The notes under the pieces were generated by a model, which worked only from the letters and a program-made list of their open reading frames with translations, ran no database searches and had not been told where the DNA came from. From assembly GCA_023664955.1 (NCBI GenBank), contig JAMPEV010000001.1:1429563-1488678 (forward strand): 59,116 nucleotides of DNA, written 5' to 3'. Made by a program: the position numbers and the translations under genes. Numbering within the stretch: the stretch's first letter is position 1; every line of letters begins with the position of its first letter. The DNA comes from Duncaniella sp. (GTDB lineage: Bacteria; Bacteroidota; Bacteroidia; Bacteroidales; Muribaculaceae). Shown piece after piece: positions 34,240 to 42,963 of the stretch.

Positions 34240-34245
34240 TAACAA

Positions 34246-34310
34246 GTTTTTCATGGTATTAGATTTAAGGTAAAAAGATTATTCGTCGTGATGACGAATA
34301 ATTTTTTTTG
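34246..34310 (+). ncRNA. Candidate small RNA of about 65 nt
   Basis: No gene precedes this on the plus strand (der is divergent), yet a near-consensus promoter is followed, about 35 bases after the predicted start, by a textbook terminator: TTATTCGTC (34279-34287), loop GTGAT, GACGAATAA (34293-34301), then eight Ts. The unpaired 5' part would be free for pairing with targets. It contains only a six-codon frame (ATG at 34253). The downstream barrel gene has its own promoter beyond the terminator, so this is a separate transcript rather than its leader. Confidence 0.55.
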
Positions 34311-34347
34311 TCATTCAATCCCCGGGATTTCGGAAATATAGTCCATA

Positions 34348-35638: not shown

Positions 35639-37201
35639 TCAAGAGTGAAGATATTCAGCCACGGCCGATGCGGCACGGTCGCCATCAATGGCGGCTGAAA
35701 CTATTCCACCGGCATAGCCAGCCCCCTCCCCACAGGGGAAAAGACCTTTGAATTTGACATGAGACAATGACTCCGGGTCACGCGGAATGCGTACCGGTGA
35801 CGATGTGCGTGTCTCAGCTCCGATTAGCACAGCCTCGTTGGTCAAGAAGCCACGGTTTTTCTTGTCAAAATCCTTGAATCCTGCCTGCAAACGGCGAGCT
35901 ATCCCCTTGGGCAGCAGTTTATCGATGCGCGCAGGATGAATACCCGGGGCATAAGAAGTGTCCGGAAGCGATGTTGACGGCTTAGAATTCACGAAATCCA
36001 TCATGCGTTGAGCCGGGGCGTTTTGGGTATGACCTGCTTCCTCCCAGAAATCACGCTCAATTTTCTCCTGAAAATGCATCATCTTCAAGGTATTGTCATC
36101 ATCAATATCGGGTACATCCTCCGGAAGAATTTCCACAACCATACCTGAATTAGCCCAACGAGTGCCTCGATTTGACGGCGACATACCATTGACCACAAGC
36201 TGGAAATCGTCGCTTGCCGCAGGGATGATAAATCCACCAGGACACATGCAAAAAGAGTACACGCCACGGTCATCAACACGCGTCAGCATAGTATATTCAG
36301 CCGCCGGAAGATAATTGCCGCGACCGTTTTTCGAGTGGTAACGCAGACAGTCAATCAACTTTTGAGGATGTTCCAATCTCACCCCTATTGCCAACCCTTT
36401 GGGTTCCATCGCAACTCCCTGGCCTTTCAACATACGATAAACATCACGGGCTGAATGTCCGGTAGCCAGAATCACGGGACCGTGAAATTCCTCTCCGGAA
36501 GAAGTAACCACACCCCCTACCGTGCCATTATTCACAATCAATCCGGTGACGCGAGTGTTAAATCTCACATCCCCTCCCGAATCCAAAATCGTATTGCGAA
36601 TACCCTTTATGACATCCGGCAGCTTATCAGTGCCGATATGGGGATGGGCATCCACAAGGATATTTTCATTAGCTCCATGCTGGGCAAAAATATGCAGAAT
36701 CTTATCAACCGGGCCCCTCTTCTTGCTTCTTGTGTAGAGCTTGCCATCGGAATATGCCCCTGCCCCACCCTCGCCGAAACAATAATTCGAGTCGGGGTTC
36801 ACCACATTTTCACGTGCGATATTTGCCATGTCCTTTCGGCGTGAATCCACATCCTTGCCTCGTTCGAGCACCACTGGTCGAAGCCCCAACTCAATGAGAC
36901 GCAGGGCAGCAAAAAGACCTGCCGGTCCGGCTCCTACCACTATAACTTGCTTACCCTCAGCAACGTTGCCATAGCGTATCGGTCGAACAAGTGAGGCATT
37001 CTCAGGCACCTCGTCAATATATACCTTTACCGACAGATTCACCATCACATTACGCTGACGTGCGTCAATCGAGCGGCGTGTTATGGTGATATGTTTTATG
37101 CGATTGGCATCTATGCCTAAATTCGTTGAAATAGTAGCCTTAAGGAGCATCTCCTCATGAGCAGTGCGCGGATCTATGCGCAGTTCTAAAGTATCTATCA
37201 T
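35639..37201 (-). CDS. FAD-dependent oxidoreductase (COG2509-type)
   Basis: 520 residues. An N-terminal about 85-residue region (ISTNLGIDANRIKHITITRRSIDARQ) precedes the FAD-binding loop VVGAGPAGLFAALRLIELG and VVLERGKDVDSRRKD. Later come the family blocks NYCFGEGGAGAYSDGKLYTR, LATGHSARDVYRML, YSFCMCPGGFIIPA and the C-terminal LFPCGEGAGYAGGIVSAAIDG, all typical of COG2509 dehydrogenases found across Bacteroidota and Firmicutes. The physiological substrate is unknown. Its ATG overlaps the stop of the MATE gene by four bases, so translation is coupled. Confidence 0.88.
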   Translation of the reverse strand: MIDTLELRIDPRTAHEEMLLKATISTNLGIDANRIKHITITRRSIDARQRNVMVNLSVKVYIDEVPENASLVRPIRYGNVAEGKQVIVVGAGPAGLFAALRLIELGLRPVVLERGKDVDSRRKDMANIARENVVNPDSNYCFGEGGAGAYSDGKLYTRSKKRGPVDKILHIFAQHGANENILVDAHPHIGTDKLPDVIKGIRNTILDSGGDVRFNTRVTGLIVNNGTVGGVVTSSGEEFHGPVILATGHSARDVYRMLKGQGVAMEPKGLAIGVRLEHPQKLIDCLRYHSKNGRGNYLPAAEYTMLTRVDDRGVYSFCMCPGGFIIPAASDDFQLVVNGMSPSNRGTRWANSGMVVEILPEDVPDIDDDNTLKMMHFQEKIERDFWEEAGHTQNAPAQRMMDFVNSKPSTSLPDTSYAPGIHPARIDKLLPKGIARRLQAGFKDFDKKNRGFLTNEAVLIGAETRTSSPVRIPRDPESLSHVKFKGLFPCGEGAGYAGGIVSAAIDGDRAASAVAEYLHS

Positions 37202-38577
37202 TGCACTGATTTTTCCATTTTACTCATCACATGTTTCATCCACCACCAAAGTGTCACAATAGCAACAAAGAATGCAATTATGTCAGACCCGGCCATCGAA
37301 GCCCACACACCGTCGATACCCCAAATTCTTGGCAAGAAAATCAAGAACGGAATGAGGAACAGAAGCTGACGCGTGAGCGACAGGAAGATCGACATTTTCG
37401 GCTTACCCACACTCTGGAAGAAATTCTGAATCACTATCTGGCAGCCTACCACCGGATAGCAGATAAAATATATCCTGAAACCTTCACGTGATAATCGTAT
37501 CAAAGTTTCGTCGGTGGTGAATAGCGAGGTGACAGTGTCGGGGAAAGCTTCACTGACTATCCATCCCACACTCGTGATAGCCAATCCAATCCATATACCA
37601 AGACGCAACGTGCGCCTCACTCTGTCATAGTTACCCGCACCGATATTATAACCGAGTATCGGTTGCATACCCTGAGTGACACCAAACACTATCATAACAA
37701 AGAACATGGTGGTGCGGTTGAGAATACCATAGGCACCTACCGCTAGATTACCATCGTCACCTCCGTAGTCGAGCAACGCACGGTTGATGAAAATCACCAC
37801 CACGCAAGCGCATACATTCATAAGAAAAGGTGACAAGCCGATTGCATAAATTCGTTTAATTATGGACCATGTCAACCAGCGGTTTTCACGCTTGAAGTGT
37901 ATTGAGCTATTTTTAGACAAGAAATGGTGAAGCACCCAAATGAAAGCAGCCGACTGTCCACATACAGTGGCTATCGCAGCTCCCTTAATCCCCCATCCCA
38001 GAGTGAAAATAAATATCGGGGCAAGGATGAGATTCACCACCACCGAAAGCAGAGCCGATACCATAGCCTTCTTCGGATATCCGGTCGCACGCATGAGATT
38101 ATTTAGTCCGATAAACACATATGATATAGGTGTGCCATACAGAATCACCTCCATAAACTCCCTAGCGTAAATTATTGTAGCGTCAGTTGCACCGAAGAAG
38201 TAAAGGATCGGATCGAGAAATATCAATGTGAGACCACCGAATACCACCGAATGAATCAATGCGAGTGTCATCACATTATTGACCACATCAGTGGCACGGT
38301 CATAATTCTTCTGACCAAGAAATATGGAACTTATGGTAGCTCCGCCTGCAGCAATCAACATCACGAAAGCGGCCACAAGGTTCATCAAAGGGAAAGTAAT
38401 AGCAAGTCCGGCAATAGCCATTGGTCCCACACCTCTGCCTATAAAAATACTGTCGATTATATTATAAAGAGATGTGGCGACGCTCGCTATGATAGCCGGT
38501 ACGGAATATTGCGTCAATAATTTCCCTATCGTGCTTTTGCCTAAATCCTCTGTTGATGTGCTCGCAGTTACTGCCAT
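37198..38577 (-). CDS. MATE-family efflux transporter
   Basis: 459 residues, about 12 membrane helices in two bundles of six. Visible: the N-terminal LGKSTIGKLLTQYSVPAIIASVATSLYNIIDSIF in pieces, GVGPMAIAGLAITFPLMNLVAAFVMLIAAGGATISS, GLNNLMRATGYPKKAM, and in the second half the matching GVTQGMQPILGYNIGAG and FFQSVGKPKMSIFLSL. MATE proteins export drugs or metabolites using proton or sodium gradients. A TAATTTTG -7 box lies upstream. It is translationally coupled (ATGA overlap) to the FAD enzyme, suggesting that an oxidised product or toxic compound links the two. Confidence 0.92.
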   Translation of the reverse strand: MAVTASTSTEDLGKSTIGKLLTQYSVPAIIASVATSLYNIIDSIFIGRGVGPMAIAGLAITFPLMNLVAAFVMLIAAGGATISSIFLGQKNYDRATDVVNNVMTLALIHSVVFGGLTLIFLDPILYFFGATDATIIYAREFMEVILYGTPISYVFIGLNNLMRATGYPKKAMVSALLSVVVNLILAPIFIFTLGWGIKGAAIATVCGQSAAFIWVLHHFLSKNSSIHFKRENRWLTWSIIKRIYAIGLSPFLMNVCACVVVIFINRALLDYGGDDGNLAVGAYGILNRTTMFFVMIVFGVTQGMQPILGYNIGAGNYDRVRRTLRLGIWIGLAITSVGWIVSEAFPDTVTSLFTTDETLIRLSREGFRIYFICYPVVGCQIVIQNFFQSVGKPKMSIFLSLTRQLLFLIPFLIFLPRIWGIDGVWASMAGSDIIAFFVAIVTLWWWMKHVMSKMEKSVQ

Positions 38578-38765: not shown

Positions 38766-38801
38766 ACCACTCTCATTCCGGCAAGACGGAATGGGAGTGG
38801 T
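38766..38801 (-). terminator. Stem-loop after the AlbA_2 protein gene
   Basis: Fifteen-base arms (38766-38780 and 38787-38801) with one wobble and a six-base loop. T-runs are absent on both sides, so efficiency is uncertain. Confidence 0.5.
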
Positions 38802-38868: not shown

Positions 38869-41800
38869 TCATTCCGGCTTGGCGGCAAATTCGCTTACTT
38901 GCTGCTGGATAGTTTCAACAACTGTGGCTCCTTGGTTGATGTTAAGTTTTCGTCCCGGTATACGTTTCTGAGCTGAATATTCAGTAATCTTGTTGTAATA
39001 AAACTCAGCTTTATCCTTGTCGATAACATCCTGCCATAAAGTAACATAATGGCTATCAACAATCGTCTTACCTTTTGAGTTGGGGTATTGCGACTCCGGA
39101 ATATCCTCCACTGCATCAACACGGTTGAAAGCCAGTCCGCTCTCAACGTGCTGGAGGAAAGTCAGCAATTGCATATCACGCGAAGCCACATTAGCATGAA
39201 TAAGTTTCTGCCCCTTTAGCAAAGCTACAGGCTTATTCTCAGGCGTAGCAGCAATTTTCTCAAGTGGAATCTTGACAACAGTACCGCCATCGTATCCGAG
39301 CACGAGATACCCATCCATCTCTTTATCGTTGATAGCAAGCGCGAGAGTCACGTTATCAGCAGCGTCTCCCCATGTATCGTCAACGGTGATTCGGAACGTA
39401 TTGTCATCCTGGAAGTAGATGTAAAATGACGGATGAACGAAACCCGGGAAACCGTCATGTAACACGTTTAGGCGATGCGTGCCGGTCTGGACACGATTTC
39501 TATTCTCCTCAGTTTCAGTAGTAGCGATTAACTGAGCAGGAGTTGGCGGAGTTGATGAAGTGTCGATTGCAGGTATAGGCTTTTGTTCCGGTCTCTCCAT
39601 TTCCGACTTTTCAACTATGTATGACTGACGTTGTTGCTGACGGATGAAGTTACGGTATTTCTCCCTACGTTCTGACAGATAATCAGTGAGGTCATCGTTC
39701 AGTTTTGGCCGTGTGGACGAGCCGTTTCTCACAAAATATACACCATCAAGCTTCTGAGGAGTTTCAAGCGGCTGAATATCCACACGGATGACACCCTTGC
39801 GTGATTCATGGTCGGTGGTGATATTTATAACATCCTCCGCACGTCCGGTGAGCCTATTGTGTATAGCATTTTGGAGGTCTACTTTCATAGCATCGAGAGT
39901 CTCCTTCTTGCCTTTTCCCCTTCTGAAACGCTTGTCATCTTCCAAGCCACACTCATAGCCAGCATCATTTACACCTATATAAAGAGTGCCCCCGTAGGCA
40001 TTGAGAAAGCCACAGATAATTTGCAGAATTTCCCTCTCCTGTTGTGCAGGTTTAGGCATCATGCGATCTTCCTTCTTATTTGTGTATACGAGGCTCGACT
40101 TGAATTCCGTGAATAAATCCTCCTCGCCGTAGTATTTCAATTCCTCATCGCGTGAATTGAGATTCAGTATCCCGGCAATTGAGGTCATAATTTCTTTCCG
40201 GGTACCATTGAACCTCTCATCCTCAGGGAGAATATTGAGAGAAATAACCATGCTTGCAAGTGATTTCTCGTTCTCATCGGAATCTTCGCTCGACAATTGC
40301 CATAGATATTCATTTTTCTCCGGGCGCCCGATAGAGCCAACTATGTCAAGCTTGGTGAAGAGCTTCTGGAGGATGGGATGACCTGCCACCTCAGTTTGAA
40401 GTTCTTCAAGATTATCATGGTCGATACTTCGGTTGCGTGCGAAGAACTGAAGATGCTTTAGCAATTTTTGGTGCAGTCGTATTTCATCGTAAATATCATC
40501 ACGACCGGCACATTTAGCAAGAAGCGAAGCAAAGCCAAGATAATTAAACGCATTGATATATTCACGTTCGGCATAAGCCTTGCGCTGAAACATCATAATG
40601 ACTTCACATACATCCTCCTCGCTCATTATTTCCTGAGCCTCTGCTACTTCAATATTCTCTTCTTCCTCTTCCGCATCAAAAGCCGGTTCGCCAAGGGCCT
40701 GCATCAGGTTGCGGAACGGCTCAGTTTTGGAAGGCTCATTATCAGGGTCAGAAATATAGCTTACAAATTCGCCGTTCATAAACTGCATTAAGGAATTCTG
40801 ACGGTCAGTGTTCTTGCCAAGGTACTCAACTTCAATCTTTGATCCGGTTTTGAAATTGGCAGTTGCGTTATCGAAAGGGACGAGGAGCGAGTAGCCTCTG
40901 TCGGATAGACAGATATATCGCTTATTGGTCTTGTCAATATCCATAATGGTAGCTATGGACTTTTCACAAAGCACAGCGTTGTTAATTAGGAACTCGTCAA
41001 TCTCACGTTTCATTGTGAAAACGTTTTCCTCACCGCTGTTTTTCACCTTAGCAGGATATACGAGAGGATTGCCATTCTCATCCTTGAAGATTGTCATATC
41101 ACCGTTAAAAGCCACAAAGTCAGTCTCATCCATCCATGAAAGCATATCCTCTTTGCAACAAGTCAACCATCCTTCACCCTTAAGATCATCATCTACAATC
41201 ACACAATGGAACCGGAGCTGATGTTCAAAAGATTTCGTCCTGTCAATGTCATAATCATCAATCATTATATACACTTCTTCGCCATCCTCCGGACTACGCT
41301 TTGTCTCCTTGACCGATTCTGTGACAGTATCACGCTGGGTAAATAAGGCACTTTGGATTGAAGCCCACATCTCCTCAAAGGCATTGATATCCTTCATCTT
41401 CCGGGCACCGGGGGTGGATATCTCTCCATCTACATATACCGTAGGTGAAAGCCATGATAGCATATTGTTGGGGAGAACACTTTTACCGCCCTTTTGACGG
41501 ATTGAGATAGAGGTCTGCCCAAGTTCAATGGTCACATTATTGGAAAGATAAACCTTTGGGGGAAGTTGTGAGAGAAGAAGCCCTTTTGAGTGCGATGCTT
41601 TTTCCTGCAAAAGCTGGAAGCGAGAAGTATCCTCCCATGTGAATTCGGCATAAAATTCCTGACCAAGGATAGCCCCTACCGCCTTGTAAAGCAGGTCATC
41701 GACATCGTTGGTACGGAAGTTGGAGAGATACCTGTAAAGCATCGTCCGGTTGTGGGCAAGGTCGATATTATCATTGCGTTTTGCGAGGAGCGACTGAATG

Positions 41801-42963
41801 GCGATTGAGCGGATTATACGATTCATCTGCTGGTTGCTCGCCAGTTCTTCATTGGCAGGGAGTGCATTGACAAGGTTACAGTTTTCTGAAATATAAATCT
41901 CGAGTTGCCCCACGAGTGCGCTACGGAACGGTTCCTCTTTCCAATTGGATATCGGCCATGAATGTAGAGCCTCAAACAACTGATTCATACGGCTTTGAAT
42001 GAGTTCTGGACGCAATCGTAAGATGGTCATCATGATTCGGAACTGACGTGAAGGTCGATATAGGAAACCTGAATTCTTCAGATTCTCGAAAATGCTGTCA
42101 ATGAATTCCTCATCCTCCTTATTGGATATCATGTGGGCAGCCTCCGAAAACTGTTCAAATTGTTCCACAAGTCCCGATAACTGTTTTTGCAAGAGTGCTC
42201 GTTGTTCAGGATTTATAGTTTTCAAGTAGTTACTCTTTTGAATAATATACAAGGCTATATCACGAGCCATATCCATGAATGAAAGAAGTTTCCTCCAATC
42301 CTTTTCCTGATTTCGAGCTTGAATGAGGAGATCGGTAATCGAAGCAGCATAGTTTTTCAAGAGAGTGAAAATCCATCGTGGCTCGGACCTACTGATTTGT
42401 CGTGCCACGTCCTCATATCCGGGTGTCACTTCAATCCAAGAGAGGAGTGACTGAGAGTGCCGAGGATTTCTGTTAATCCTTCTAAGCCAAGAGTCTATGC
42501 CCACGAAAGGAAGATTCATCTCCTGTGCTAACAGACCGGCGTATCTCAATGACACGTAAGCATTTTCTATTTTATGGATTTTACATTTTACTATTTGACC
42601 TCTCGTCAGCGAAGATGGGGCATTGTAGAGTGAAAAAAACAGTCCATTATCATCTTCCACATCGAAGTTTCCCGGCTTACCTATCTTTTTCCCTTTAATC
42701 TTAAAATCATACTCCTCTCCCTCCTTATAGAACATTCGGATAATGACCGAAAGATCTTGCCTGAGATAAACATATCCATCTTTTATATCTTTGATATAAA
42801 TATCCAGAGTGTCGGGTATCGGCCTATCCTTCTGAAATTTCAGTTTTGGAATGCTGTATTCTTCTCCATCATCGGTTTTAACAACAAAATAATTAAATCT
42901 CGACTTCTCCTTGTCGAGCGGTAACGTGCAATGCTCGTTAATTTTAAAATCTGTTGAATTCAT
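38869..42963 (-). CDS. 1364-residue protein with OB/S1-like modules and a Schlafen-type AlbA_2 domain
   Basis: The start is the ATG at 42963 (MNSTDFKINEH); an upstream TTG is not credible. Residues about 40-145 hold two short beta modules (IKDGYVYLRQDLSVII; RGQIVKCKIHKIENAYVSLRYAG) like S1/OB folds. Residues about 145-500 are mostly helical. About 690-740 is a third OB-like stretch (TGSKIEVEYLGKN). Residues about 940-1110 are an AlbA_2 (Schlafen-like) domain: DLFTEFKSSLVY, EREILQIICGFLNAYGGTLYIGVND, then GVYFVRNGSSTRP. A Pro/Thr linker (about 1130-1165) leads to a C-terminal beta-rich domain (DGYLVLGYDGGTVVKIPL). AlbA_2 domains bind, and in animal Schlafens cleave, RNA. A role in RNA processing or defence is inference. 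Neighbours are unrelated. Confidence 0.75.
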   Translation of the reverse strand: MNSTDFKINEHCTLPLDKEKSRFNYFVVKTDDGEEYSIPKLKFQKDRPIPDTLDIYIKDIKDGYVYLRQDLSVIIRMFYKEGEEYDFKIKGKKIGKPGNFDVEDDNGLFFSLYNAPSSLTRGQIVKCKIHKIENAYVSLRYAGLLAQEMNLPFVGIDSWLRRINRNPRHSQSLLSWIEVTPGYEDVARQISRSEPRWIFTLLKNYAASITDLLIQARNQEKDWRKLLSFMDMARDIALYIIQKSNYLKTINPEQRALLQKQLSGLVEQFEQFSEAAHMISNKEDEEFIDSIFENLKNSGFLYRPSRQFRIMMTILRLRPELIQSRMNQLFEALHSWPISNWKEEPFRSALVGQLEIYISENCNLVNALPANEELASNQQMNRIIRSIAIQSLLAKRNDNIDLAHNRTMLYRYLSNFRTNDVDDLLYKAVGAILGQEFYAEFTWEDTSRFQLLQEKASHSKGLLLSQLPPKVYLSNNVTIELGQTSISIRQKGGKSVLPNNMLSWLSPTVYVDGEISTPGARKMKDINAFEEMWASIQSALFTQRDTVTESVKETKRSPEDGEEVYIMIDDYDIDRTKSFEHQLRFHCVIVDDDLKGEGWLTCCKEDMLSWMDETDFVAFNGDMTIFKDENGNPLVYPAKVKNSGEENVFTMKREIDEFLINNAVLCEKSIATIMDIDKTNKRYICLSDRGYSLLVPFDNATANFKTGSKIEVEYLGKNTDRQNSLMQFMNGEFVSYISDPDNEPSKTEPFRNLMQALGEPAFDAEEEEENIEVAEAQEIMSEEDVCEVIMMFQRKAYAEREYINAFNYLGFASLLAKCAGRDDIYDEIRLHQKLLKHLQFFARNRSIDHDNLEELQTEVAGHPILQKLFTKLDIVGSIGRPEKNEYLWQLSSEDSDENEKSLASMVISLNILPEDERFNGTRKEIMTSIAGILNLNSRDEELKYYGEEDLFTEFKSSLVYTNKKEDRMMPKPAQQEREILQIICGFLNAYGGTLYIGVNDAGYECGLEDDKRFRRGKGKKETLDAMKVDLQNAIHNRLTGRAEDVINITTDHESRKGVIRVDIQPLETPQKLDGVYFVRNGSSTRPKLNDDLTDYLSERREKYRNFIRQQQRQSYIVEKSEMERPEQKPIPAIDTSSTPPTPAQLIATTETEENRNRVQTGTHRLNVLHDGFPGFVHPSFYIYFQDDNTFRITVDDTWGDAADNVTLALAINDKEMDGYLVLGYDGGTVVKIPLEKIAATPENKPVALLKGQKLIHANVASRDMQLLTFLQHVESGLAFNRVDAVEDIPESQYPNSKGKTIVDSHYVTLWQDVIDKDKAEFYYNKITEYSAQKRIPGRKLNINQGATVVETIQQQVSEFAAKPE

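What the first reader, a model, noticed from the sequence alone, without database searches (positions are those of the whole stretch)
38869..42963. Giant AlbA_2 (Schlafen-like) protein with OB/S1 modules, possibly a new RNA-acting system
The sequence shows a 1364-residue single-gene protein joining repeated S1/OB-like nucleic-acid-binding stretches, a long helical middle, an AlbA_2 domain near residues 940-1110, and an unassigned beta-rich C-terminus. Established: AlbA_2 is the fold of the RNA-cleaving core of animal Schlafens and occurs in many uncharacterised bacterial proteins. Inference: a tRNA or mRNA processing or anti-phage factor. The C-terminal GYLVLGYDGGTVVKIPL stretch loosely recalls GyrA pinwheel blades. 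Neighbours are metabolic, so context does not support a classic defence island.
Basis: partly seen in the sequence, partly recalled or inferred. Interest (0 to 1): 0.72.

Follow-up and report, generated by a model that had tools for sequence, protein, structure and literature searches.

The report
Giant Schlafen-like protein of gut Bacteroidales
A gut bacterium carries one very large protein that joins a repeated small module to the enzyme core that animal Schlafen proteins use to cut RNA, with the cutting residues intact; it belongs to an undescribed family that looks like a built-in switch for cutting RNA, though no activity has yet been shown.

Summary
The 1364-residue gene (minus strand, 38869-42963) is real; one copy was found in its (83% complete) genome. 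Its AlbA_2 domain passes Pfam's cut-off, and all 14 PDB sequences matched by the family's AlbA_2 profile are Schlafens. The residues that rat SLFN13 uses to cut RNA are kept: E948, E953 and K955 in 57 of 57 non-redundant members covering them, D1000 in 47 (N in 10). A module occurs three times (residues 4-68, 77-140, 664-718) and weakly resembles S1/OB domains; the C-terminal domain weakly recalls the GyrA C-terminus. The family occurs in 78 of 247 genomes of the window's taxonomic family, with no second full-length copy seen, elsewhere in Bacteroidales, and on two Segatella plasmids; none was found in phages. Loci differ between lineages, neighbours are ordinary, and no known defence family matches. 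Sister proteins end in a WYL-like domain, and the N-terminal module also occurs on a restriction-type helicase. Best reading: a single-protein, self-restrained Schlafen-type RNase that stops translation on a nucleic-acid trigger, working like SLFN13 or SAMD9L without being a member of either family. Catalysis, trigger and self-restraint are inferred.

The parts
38869..42963 (-). whole gene, 1364 aa
42760..42954 (-). module copy N1, residues 4-68, weakly S1/OB-like as part of the merged module
   Evidence: hhalign N1 against N2 96.8%, P=3e-10; alignment; alone it does not beat shuffles against S1 (12.3, max 12.6)
42544..42735 (-). module copy N2, residues 77-140, S1/OB-like
   Evidence: against S1 score 16.5, 20 shuffles mean 9.2, max 12.2
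41584..42516 (-). middle region, residues 150-460, probably helical (not modelled)
   Evidence: mean identity to window 0.32 over 57 members; no Pfam family above cut-off
40810..40974 (-). module copy M2, residues 664-718, S1/OB-like
   Evidence: hhalign N2 against M2 92.3%, P=5.5e-7; against S1 score 19.2 over 39 columns, 20 shuffles max 10.3; the same region also beats shuffles against GyrA
40156..40611 (-). second probably helical region, residues 785-936
   Evidence: mean identity to window 0.31 over 56 members
39706..40122 (-). AlbA_2 (Schlafen core) domain, residues 948-1086
   Evidence: Pfam PF04326 E=3.7e-13; 14 of 14 PDB hits are Schlafens
40099..40122 (-). motif E948-x4-E953-x-K955, counterpart of rat SLFN13 E205/E210/K212
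   Evidence: 57 of 57 non-redundant members covering it; SLFN13 residues
39964..39966 (-). D1000, counterpart of SLFN13 D248 and SLFN5 D233
   Evidence: D in 47, N in 10 of 57; HMM alignment places its column on position 233 of SLFN5 chain 6rr9_A
38872..39486 (-). C-terminal domain, residues 1160-1364, weakly GyrA-C-terminal-like; absent from the ~1100-aa members
   Evidence: 4 of 4 PDB hits GyrA, best E=0.01; present in 37 of 58 members

Best explanation
It is a one-gene, conditionally active endoribonuclease built around a Schlafen-type AlbA_2 active site. Shown by sequence: an AlbA_2 domain of Schlafen kind, invariant E948/E953/K955 with D1000 (or N), three copies of one small module, two long conserved regions, a C-terminal domain that some relatives lack. 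Inferred: the modules and C-terminal domain bind nucleic acid and hold the nuclease in check; when a trigger (phage- or stress-derived RNA or DNA, or stalled translation) engages them, two chains pair their single AlbA_2 domains into the two-lobed groove of animal Schlafens, cut tRNA or rRNA with a metal ion, and stop translation. It works like SLFN13 or SAMD9L.
For: The AlbA_2 profile hits only Schlafens in the PDB, 14 of 14, best E=7.5e-8 for the whole sequence. The E-x4-E-x-K spacing equals rat SLFN13 E205/E210/K212, and the D1000 column falls on SLFN5 D233, the counterpart of SLFN13 D248. E/E/K are invariant in 57 of 57 members at about 36% mean domain identity to the window, as expected of an active site. 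The lysine is reported for cutting Schlafens (SLFN13, SLFN12) and missing from SLFN5 and mouse Slfn2, for which no cutting was seen. One module occurs three times. Three of three sister proteins scanned carry a WYL-like C-terminus (PADLOC E 8.7e-8, 6.9e-8, 9.7e-11; Pfam WYL below cut-off in two), so the C-terminus looks like a swappable sensor. SAMD9L is a precedent: giant protein, AlbA_2 effector, C-terminal autoregulation, with an OB fold in the family architecture. Bacterial Schlafen RNases are reported in BREX loci.
Against: No activity or structure was tested. The PDB E-values sum several weak stretches (best single one 0.056), and in SLFN5 the best stretch is the N-lobe, not the catalytic C-lobe. 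The E/E/K motif also occurs in other bacterial AlbA_2 proteins: all 25 of 43 aligned stretches that cover it show it, so it is not specific to this family. D1000 is N in 10 of 57 members. Older literature calls AlbA_2 DNA-binding. The S1 likeness is below ordinary thresholds (33.7%), module copy N1 alone does not beat shuffles, and the shuffle test is permissive: residues 150-460 against S1 (15.5, max 12.6) and 556-745 against GyrA (25.0, max 18.6) beat it too. The N-terminal profile found no OB or S1 structure in the PDB. No partner or trigger gene recurs across lineages.
Confidence: 0.5

Rival explanations
1. A non-cutting nucleic-acid-binding regulator, comparable to SLFN5, in which AlbA_2 only binds DNA or RNA and the repeated modules and C-terminal domain give affinity.
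For: SLFN5 keeps part of the triad yet no tRNA cleavage was seen; D1000 is N in 10 of 57 members; AlbA_2 is treated as DNA-binding in pAgo proteins; a GyrA-like C-terminus is hinted at; WYL-like sister domains.
Against: The active-site lysine that SLFN5 lacks and both glutamates are invariant here (57 of 57).
Confidence: 0.25
2. A constitutive RNA-processing factor (tRNA or rRNA maturation or turnover) that some lineages use and others replace.
For: No second full-length copy seen, ordinary neighbours, host-like codon usage, and identity within the range of syntenic neighbours in 14 of 16 pairs of loci.
Against: Only 78 of 247 genomes of its taxonomic family have a copy at E<=1e-20, and 17 of 27 genus members lack one at that threshold; a core processing step would rarely be that dispensable.
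Confidence: 0.15
3. A dedicated anti-phage (abortive-infection) system. This overlaps with the best explanation: it is one possible use of a triggered RNase, so its odds are not additional to it.
For: Bacterial Schlafens reported as defence effectors; copies on two Segatella plasmids, one within about 10 kb of two DUF262 genes and a DUF559 gene; N-terminal module fused to a ResIII helicase beside a UvrD-like gene; patchy occurrence.
Against: No PADLOC match; 115 nearest neighbours match 14 PADLOC families at 1e-15 against 35 for 115 more distant genes (families counted, not proteins); no match in 50,697 phage records and none confirmed in viral contigs; mostly ordinary local evolution.
Confidence: 0.25

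Closest known systems
Animal Schlafens with RNase activity (SLFN13, SLFN11, SLFN12)
   Same: AlbA_2 core; E-x4-E-x-K and D at matching places; the family profile hits only Schlafens in the PDB.
   Different: One AlbA_2 copy instead of two lobes; no CC pair for a zinc finger in the domain; different flanking regions.
SAMD9 / SAMD9L
   Same: Giant single protein with AlbA_2; family architecture also has helical repeats and an OB fold; E198/D243 of SAMD9L needed for translation block.
   Different: No P-loop NTPase or SIR2-like domain found in the window protein; domain order differs; the two glutamates are 12 apart in SAMD9L (E186, E198), 5 here.
Bacterial Schlafen-family RNases in BREX loci
   Same: Bacterial Schlafen domain proposed as RNase.
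   Different: Those are fused to a minimal histidine kinase and winged HTH and sit in BREX loci; Pfam finds neither domain here and the neighbours are not BREX genes.
WYL-bearing AlbA_2 proteins of the same taxonomic family (L142, L143, L144)
   Same: AlbA_2 homologous in all three; in L142 and L143 the similarity also covers the preceding helical region, about 300 residues.
   Different: Lack the N-terminal module pair by profile coverage; C-terminus is WYL-like.

Membership tests
Pfam SLFN_AlbA_2 (PF04326) | Score above curated cut-off | tested here: met
   50.5 bits against 25.3; 22 of 22 rows scanned match at E up to 1
Animal Schlafen RNases | Carboxylate triad and active-site lysine (SLFN13 E205/E210/D248, K212) | tested here: met
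   E948/E953/K955 in 57 of 57; D1000 is D in 47, N in 10; correspondence; that of the two glutamates and lysine rests on spacing and the Pfam start, not on a direct alignment to SLFN13
Animal Schlafen RNases | Two-lobed core in one chain | tested here: not met
   One AlbA_2 stretch only
Animal Schlafen RNases | Zinc finger H/C/C/C in the core (as in SLFN5) | tested here: not met
   No CC pair in residues 938-1115 of the translation; read by eye, not searched by profile
Animal Schlafen RNases | Metal-dependent tRNA/rRNA cleavage | not testable with these tools
   needs protein
SAMD9 family | P-loop NTPase and SIR2-like domain | tested here: not met
   No Pfam hit; no Walker A pattern in the window protein, though 6 of 58 members hold the loose pattern somewhere
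SAMD9 family | TPR array and OB fold | tested here: inconclusive
   Module weakly S1-like; no TPR family among the Pfam matches shown
S1 RNA-binding domain (PF00575) | Profile match | tested here: inconclusive
   No Pfam match; merged module against seven S1 repeats 33.7%, above all 60 shuffles, but the shuffle test is permissive
GyrA C-terminal domain (PF03989) | Profile match of beta-pinwheel blades | tested here: inconclusive
   No Pfam match; 4 of 4 PDB hits GyrA, E=0.01 to 0.24; hhalign 18.8 against shuffle max 23.5; a sub-stretch 1195-1300 did beat shuffles against one GyrA (15.2, max 13.9)
Known anti-phage defence systems | Match to PADLOC-DB | tested here: not met
   0 families at E up to 10
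Known anti-phage defence systems | Defence-island neighbourhood | tested here: not met
   a crude count, see Tried and rejected
BREX-linked Schlafen RNases | Fusion to minimal histidine kinase and winged HTH, in a BREX locus | tested here: not met
   Features; not found

The most novel reading that the evidence does not exclude
A new class of single-protein nucleic-acid-sensing suicide or dormancy effector in gut Bacteroidales: tandem S1-like modules (plus an optional pinwheel-like or WYL domain) sense foreign or damaged nucleic acid and unleash a Schlafen tRNase. It would be a bacterial counterpart of SAMD9L and SLFN11, kept on chromosomes at variable loci, one per genome. (Odds lowered from 0.28 to 0.25 on rechecking, because the shuffle control behind the S1 likeness is permissive.)
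Probability: 0.25. Interest if true: 0.78.

Novelty: new variant of a known kind. Interest (0 to 1): 0.52.

Why it matters
If the active site works, an unnamed protein family found in about a third of the sampled genomes of one gut family would cut RNA with the same residues as human antiviral Schlafens, which would bear on where those immune enzymes came from and give a bacterial model of how a giant Schlafen protein is kept off. The Segatella copies are annotated only as 'ATP-binding protein', a label that the sequence does not support: no nucleotide-binding family or Walker A pattern is found in the window protein, and the SLFN5 core neither binds nor hydrolyses ATP.

Tried and rejected
GyrA pinwheel: HMMER hits are all GyrA (best single stretch only 0.34), but the whole domain does not beat column shuffles with one GyrA sequence (17.6, max 19.7) or with 27 more (18.8, max 23.5); a hint only. 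S1 likeness of the N-terminus by PDB search: 4 weak hits, none OB or S1. The column-shuffle control is permissive: beside N2, M2 and the merged module against S1, it was also beaten by residues 150-460 against S1 (over 12 columns), by 1195-1300 against S1 (13.6, max 13.4) and against one GyrA, by 655-745 and 556-745 against GyrA, and by the merged module against residues 556-660 (15.5, max 14.9). Residues 655-745 by PDB search: 30 weak hits, best E=0.12, mostly picornavirus capsid proteins, taken as chance; Unr 0.77, PNPase 1.1 and RNase R 2 noted. Fermitin, RalGAP, UFL1 and VanZ-F matches are weak and isolated, taken as chance. Genome scan with the single protein: nothing. Empty site: the FAD protein is in 23 of 27 genus genomes; of 20 flanks fetched 17 have the MATE gene beside it; of 15 printed, six share the same next gene (a 407-424 aa transporter-like frame) and the others differ, none matching the window, so there is no clean empty site. 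Recent transfer judged by composition: GC and codon usage look host-like (second lowest divergence of 25 genes; the measure favours long genes), though the closest relatives are in another genus (43% identity, L109 and L110) while own-genus copies are 24-26%. Mutual exclusion of architectures: no genome of 78 shows two full-length copies (at 1e-20, at most three candidates scored per genome); no phylogeny-aware test was made. For the 58 non-redundant members, seven more distant relatives (L105-L108, L142-L144) had been left out before alignment; five of them were read apart and all show the E/E/K/D motif. The 14-against-35 PADLOC comparison counts families matched, of which the second list was shown only in part; one protein can match many, neighbours were dereplicated and limited to 120-1400 aa, and genes three places away (such as the large frame in L032) fall in neither set. 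Literature: listings show no paper on this architecture; the library lacks most subscription papers and all bioRxiv preprints, and the bacterial Schlafen defence preprint was seen only as a citation.
Full report
WHAT IS THERE. The frame on the minus strand runs from ATG at 42963 to a stop at 38869, 1364 residues. One match lies in the window's own genome, which is 82.7% complete; that genome has one other AlbA_2 match, in a 220-aa frame on another contig. Pfam finds only SLFN_AlbA_2 above its cut-off, at residues 948-1086. NCBIfam gives one chance hit and PADLOC none. The single sequence finds no convincing PDB relative.

THE FAMILY. With the single sequence, 23 of 61 related genomes (the window's own included) gave a match; ten others match over more than half of the protein and one in two pieces, at 25-31% identity. 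With a nine-row profile, 78 of 247 genomes of the taxonomic family match at E<=1e-20, in 18 of 30 genera. By frame length I count 36 with a frame of 1235-1430 aa like the window's, 27 of 1055-1188 aa, 10 shorter ones (823-1027 aa), and 5 partial ones (four at contig ends or split between contigs; G493 not checked). No genome shows two full-length copies; G430 has one plus a 600-aa frame with AlbA_2. Across the order, 207 of 393 genomes match at E<=0.001, but most of the listed matches cover AlbA_2 only; the long ones outside the window's taxonomic family are G059, G402 and G247. In 395 genomes of the phylum sample, 4 match at 1e-20: the window and three others, those three over the AlbA_2 part only. 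A scan of named genomes returned 21 loci, all Bacteroidales by their titles, 13 labelled Muribaculaceae or Muribaculum, 20 of them at 36-48% identity and one at 26%. Of five plasmid records with a match, two Segatella plasmids (93 and 317 kb, typed non-mobilizable) carry full-length homologues covering 92% and 90% of the protein, about 7 and 3 kb from a replication initiation gene; both are called 'ATP-binding protein'. A Phocaeicola plasmid protein matches from AlbA_2 onward in that search, and more weakly over more of its length against other members. The phage collection has no match at 1e-3, and a pattern scan of viral contigs confirmed none.

TREE AND RATE. The window's nearest relatives among those compared are L109 and L110, from another genus, at 43% identity; own-genus copies of the 1100-aa kind are 24-26% identical, while a neighbouring FAD protein is 71-80% identical within the genus. 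So the window's gene is probably not the orthologue of the copies in its sister species; old paralogy, loss or transfer could explain it. In 14 of 16 pairs of loci with shared neighbours, the gene's identity lies within the range of its neighbours (for example 84.9% against 76-93% in L030/L031); in the other two (L135/L136 and L117/L120) it is below both neighbours compared. Mostly, then, it evolves at an ordinary rate locally, unlike a fast-moving conflict gene.

CONTEXT. Within a lineage the neighbourhood is often kept; between lineages it differs, with no partner that recurs throughout. In 115 dereplicated nearest neighbours (within two genes, from 45 loci) PADLOC models match 14 families at 1e-15, against 35 in 115 genes at least four genes away. 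The near set does include matches to mads_2 (two proteins), mads_3 (1.5e-89), mads_8 and GajB-type helicase models; the proteins behind them were not identified. Neighbours in the window are a MATE transporter, an FAD protein and a YhcH-like gene (these names recalled) and a family-2 glycosidase (name recalled; two such proteins appear in the neighbour scan).

ACTIVE SITE. The AlbA_2 profile of 30 family members hits 14 PDB sequences, all Schlafens (SLFN5 E=7.5e-8, SLFN11, SLFN12, 'Schlafen 8' 5yd0, SLFN14). These E-values sum several weak stretches (best single one 0.056); in SLFN5 the best stretch is the N-lobe, in 7fex, SLFN12 and 5yd0 the C-lobe region. 5yd0 is the rat SLFN13 structure according to the SLFN5 paper (passages). 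SLFN13 needs E205, E210 and D248; the two glutamate mutants were wholly inactive (PMC5862951, passages). The SLFN5 paper adds K212 near the site, gives SLFN5 D233 as the D248 counterpart, and reports that SLFN5, which lacks the lysine, did not cut tRNA (PMC8789055, passages). In chain 6rr9_A the family's D1000 column falls on position 233 (counted by hand, taking chain numbering as protein numbering). The first motif lies outside the local HMM alignment and rests on spacing (E-x4-E-x-K in both) and on Pfam model position 1 falling on E948. Among 58 non-redundant members, 57 cover the region: E948, E953, K955, D1010 and R1079 are invariant, D1000 is D in 47 and N in 10. The same motif is seen in other bacterial AlbA_2 proteins (all 25 of 43 stretches that cover it), so it marks a class rather than this family alone.

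MODULES. Residues 4-68, 77-140 and 664-718 are copies of one module. Merged, they align almost end to end with seven S1 repeats of the same genome, 33.7%, score 19.3, 60 shuffles mean 7.3 and maximum 11.5. Singly, N2 (16.5, max 12.2) and M2 (19.2, max 10.3) beat 20 shuffles and N1 (12.3, max 12.6) does not. The control is permissive: other region pairs beat it as well (see Tried and rejected). Pfam does not call S1 and a PDB search with the N-terminus finds no OB protein, so 'S1/OB-like' is a supported guess, not proven. In another family of the order the same N-terminal module (family-profile score about 60 bits) sits on a ResIII helicase, in L106 next to a UvrD-like gene.

C-TERMINUS. Residues 1160-1364 form a domain present in 37 of 58 members. 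Its profile finds four PDB sequences at E<=10, all GyrA C-terminal domains, E=0.01 to 0.24. Profile-profile comparison of the whole domain with GyrA did not exceed shuffles. I leave this open. In three of three sister proteins scanned (L142, L143, L144) the C-terminus matches WYL models instead (PADLOC E 8.7e-8, 6.9e-8, 9.7e-11; Pfam below cut-off in two); the other seven short frames were not scanned.

HOW IT MOST LIKELY WORKS. Shown: the domain, its residues, the repeats, the replaceable end, the distribution. Inferred: cutting of RNA; sensing by the modules and end domain; self-restraint; dimerisation of the single AlbA_2 domain to mimic the two lobes of animal Schlafens. SAMD9L offers the closest logic: AlbA_2 effector residues needed for translation block, and loss of the C-terminal part giving constant activity (PMC11221667, passages); SAMD9 architecture from PMC5445408 (abstract and passages). 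A 2026 study reports Schlafen RNases in BREX loci and cites a preprint on bacterial Schlafens in phage defence (PMC12839542, passages; the preprint itself was not seen). Against this, an earlier survey treats AlbA_2 as DNA-binding (PMC6299218, passages). Passages of PMC3710099 and reference entries of PMC12851939 were also seen.

VERDICT. A real family, not described in the listings, with a probably working Schlafen active site; a new variant of a known kind. Defence is possible but not indicated by context.

Noticed in passing
34244-34311 (+): Rfam family RF04319 (FopS, a Bacteroidetes sRNA) matches above its gathering score.
   Followed up: no
38766-38801 (-): A 15-base imperfect inverted repeat with a 6-base loop lies about 70 bases after the gene's stop, seen by eye; possibly a terminator, though no T run follows it.
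   Followed up: no
L106:3767-9148 (and L107): A helicase of the ResIII kind bearing the same N-terminal module, next to a UvrD-like gene (in L107 the neighbour is in two frames); looks like an unnamed two-gene defence-like pair.
   Followed up: partly
L142:7247-10159, L143:6364-9432, L144:7791-10649: AlbA_2 proteins of about 950-1020 aa ending in a WYL-like domain, a sister branch; a frame of similar length in the window's genus (G017) was not domain-scanned.
   Followed up: partly
L032:1421-5380: A 1319-aa frame three genes upstream of the family member; by eye its start recalls a GIY-YIG/T5orf172 nuclease domain (recalled, not searched).
   Followed up: no
L108:8731-10848: A GmrSD_N (DUF262) protein fused to AlbA_2; it matches PADLOC PDC-M55C at 5.4e-65 over residues 2-530.
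   Followed up: no
L035:12933-14606: A second protein whose start looks like AlbA_2 (read by eye) lies 1 kb from the family member in G059, with a transposase-like frame some 5 kb away on the other side (read by eye).
   Followed up: no
window 35639-38577: The MATE and FAD-protein pair downstream is conserved in the genus (FAD in 23 of 27; MATE beside it in 17 of 20 flanks), and genes of the same two clusters also lie next to the 1093-aa family member in L139.
   Followed up: partly
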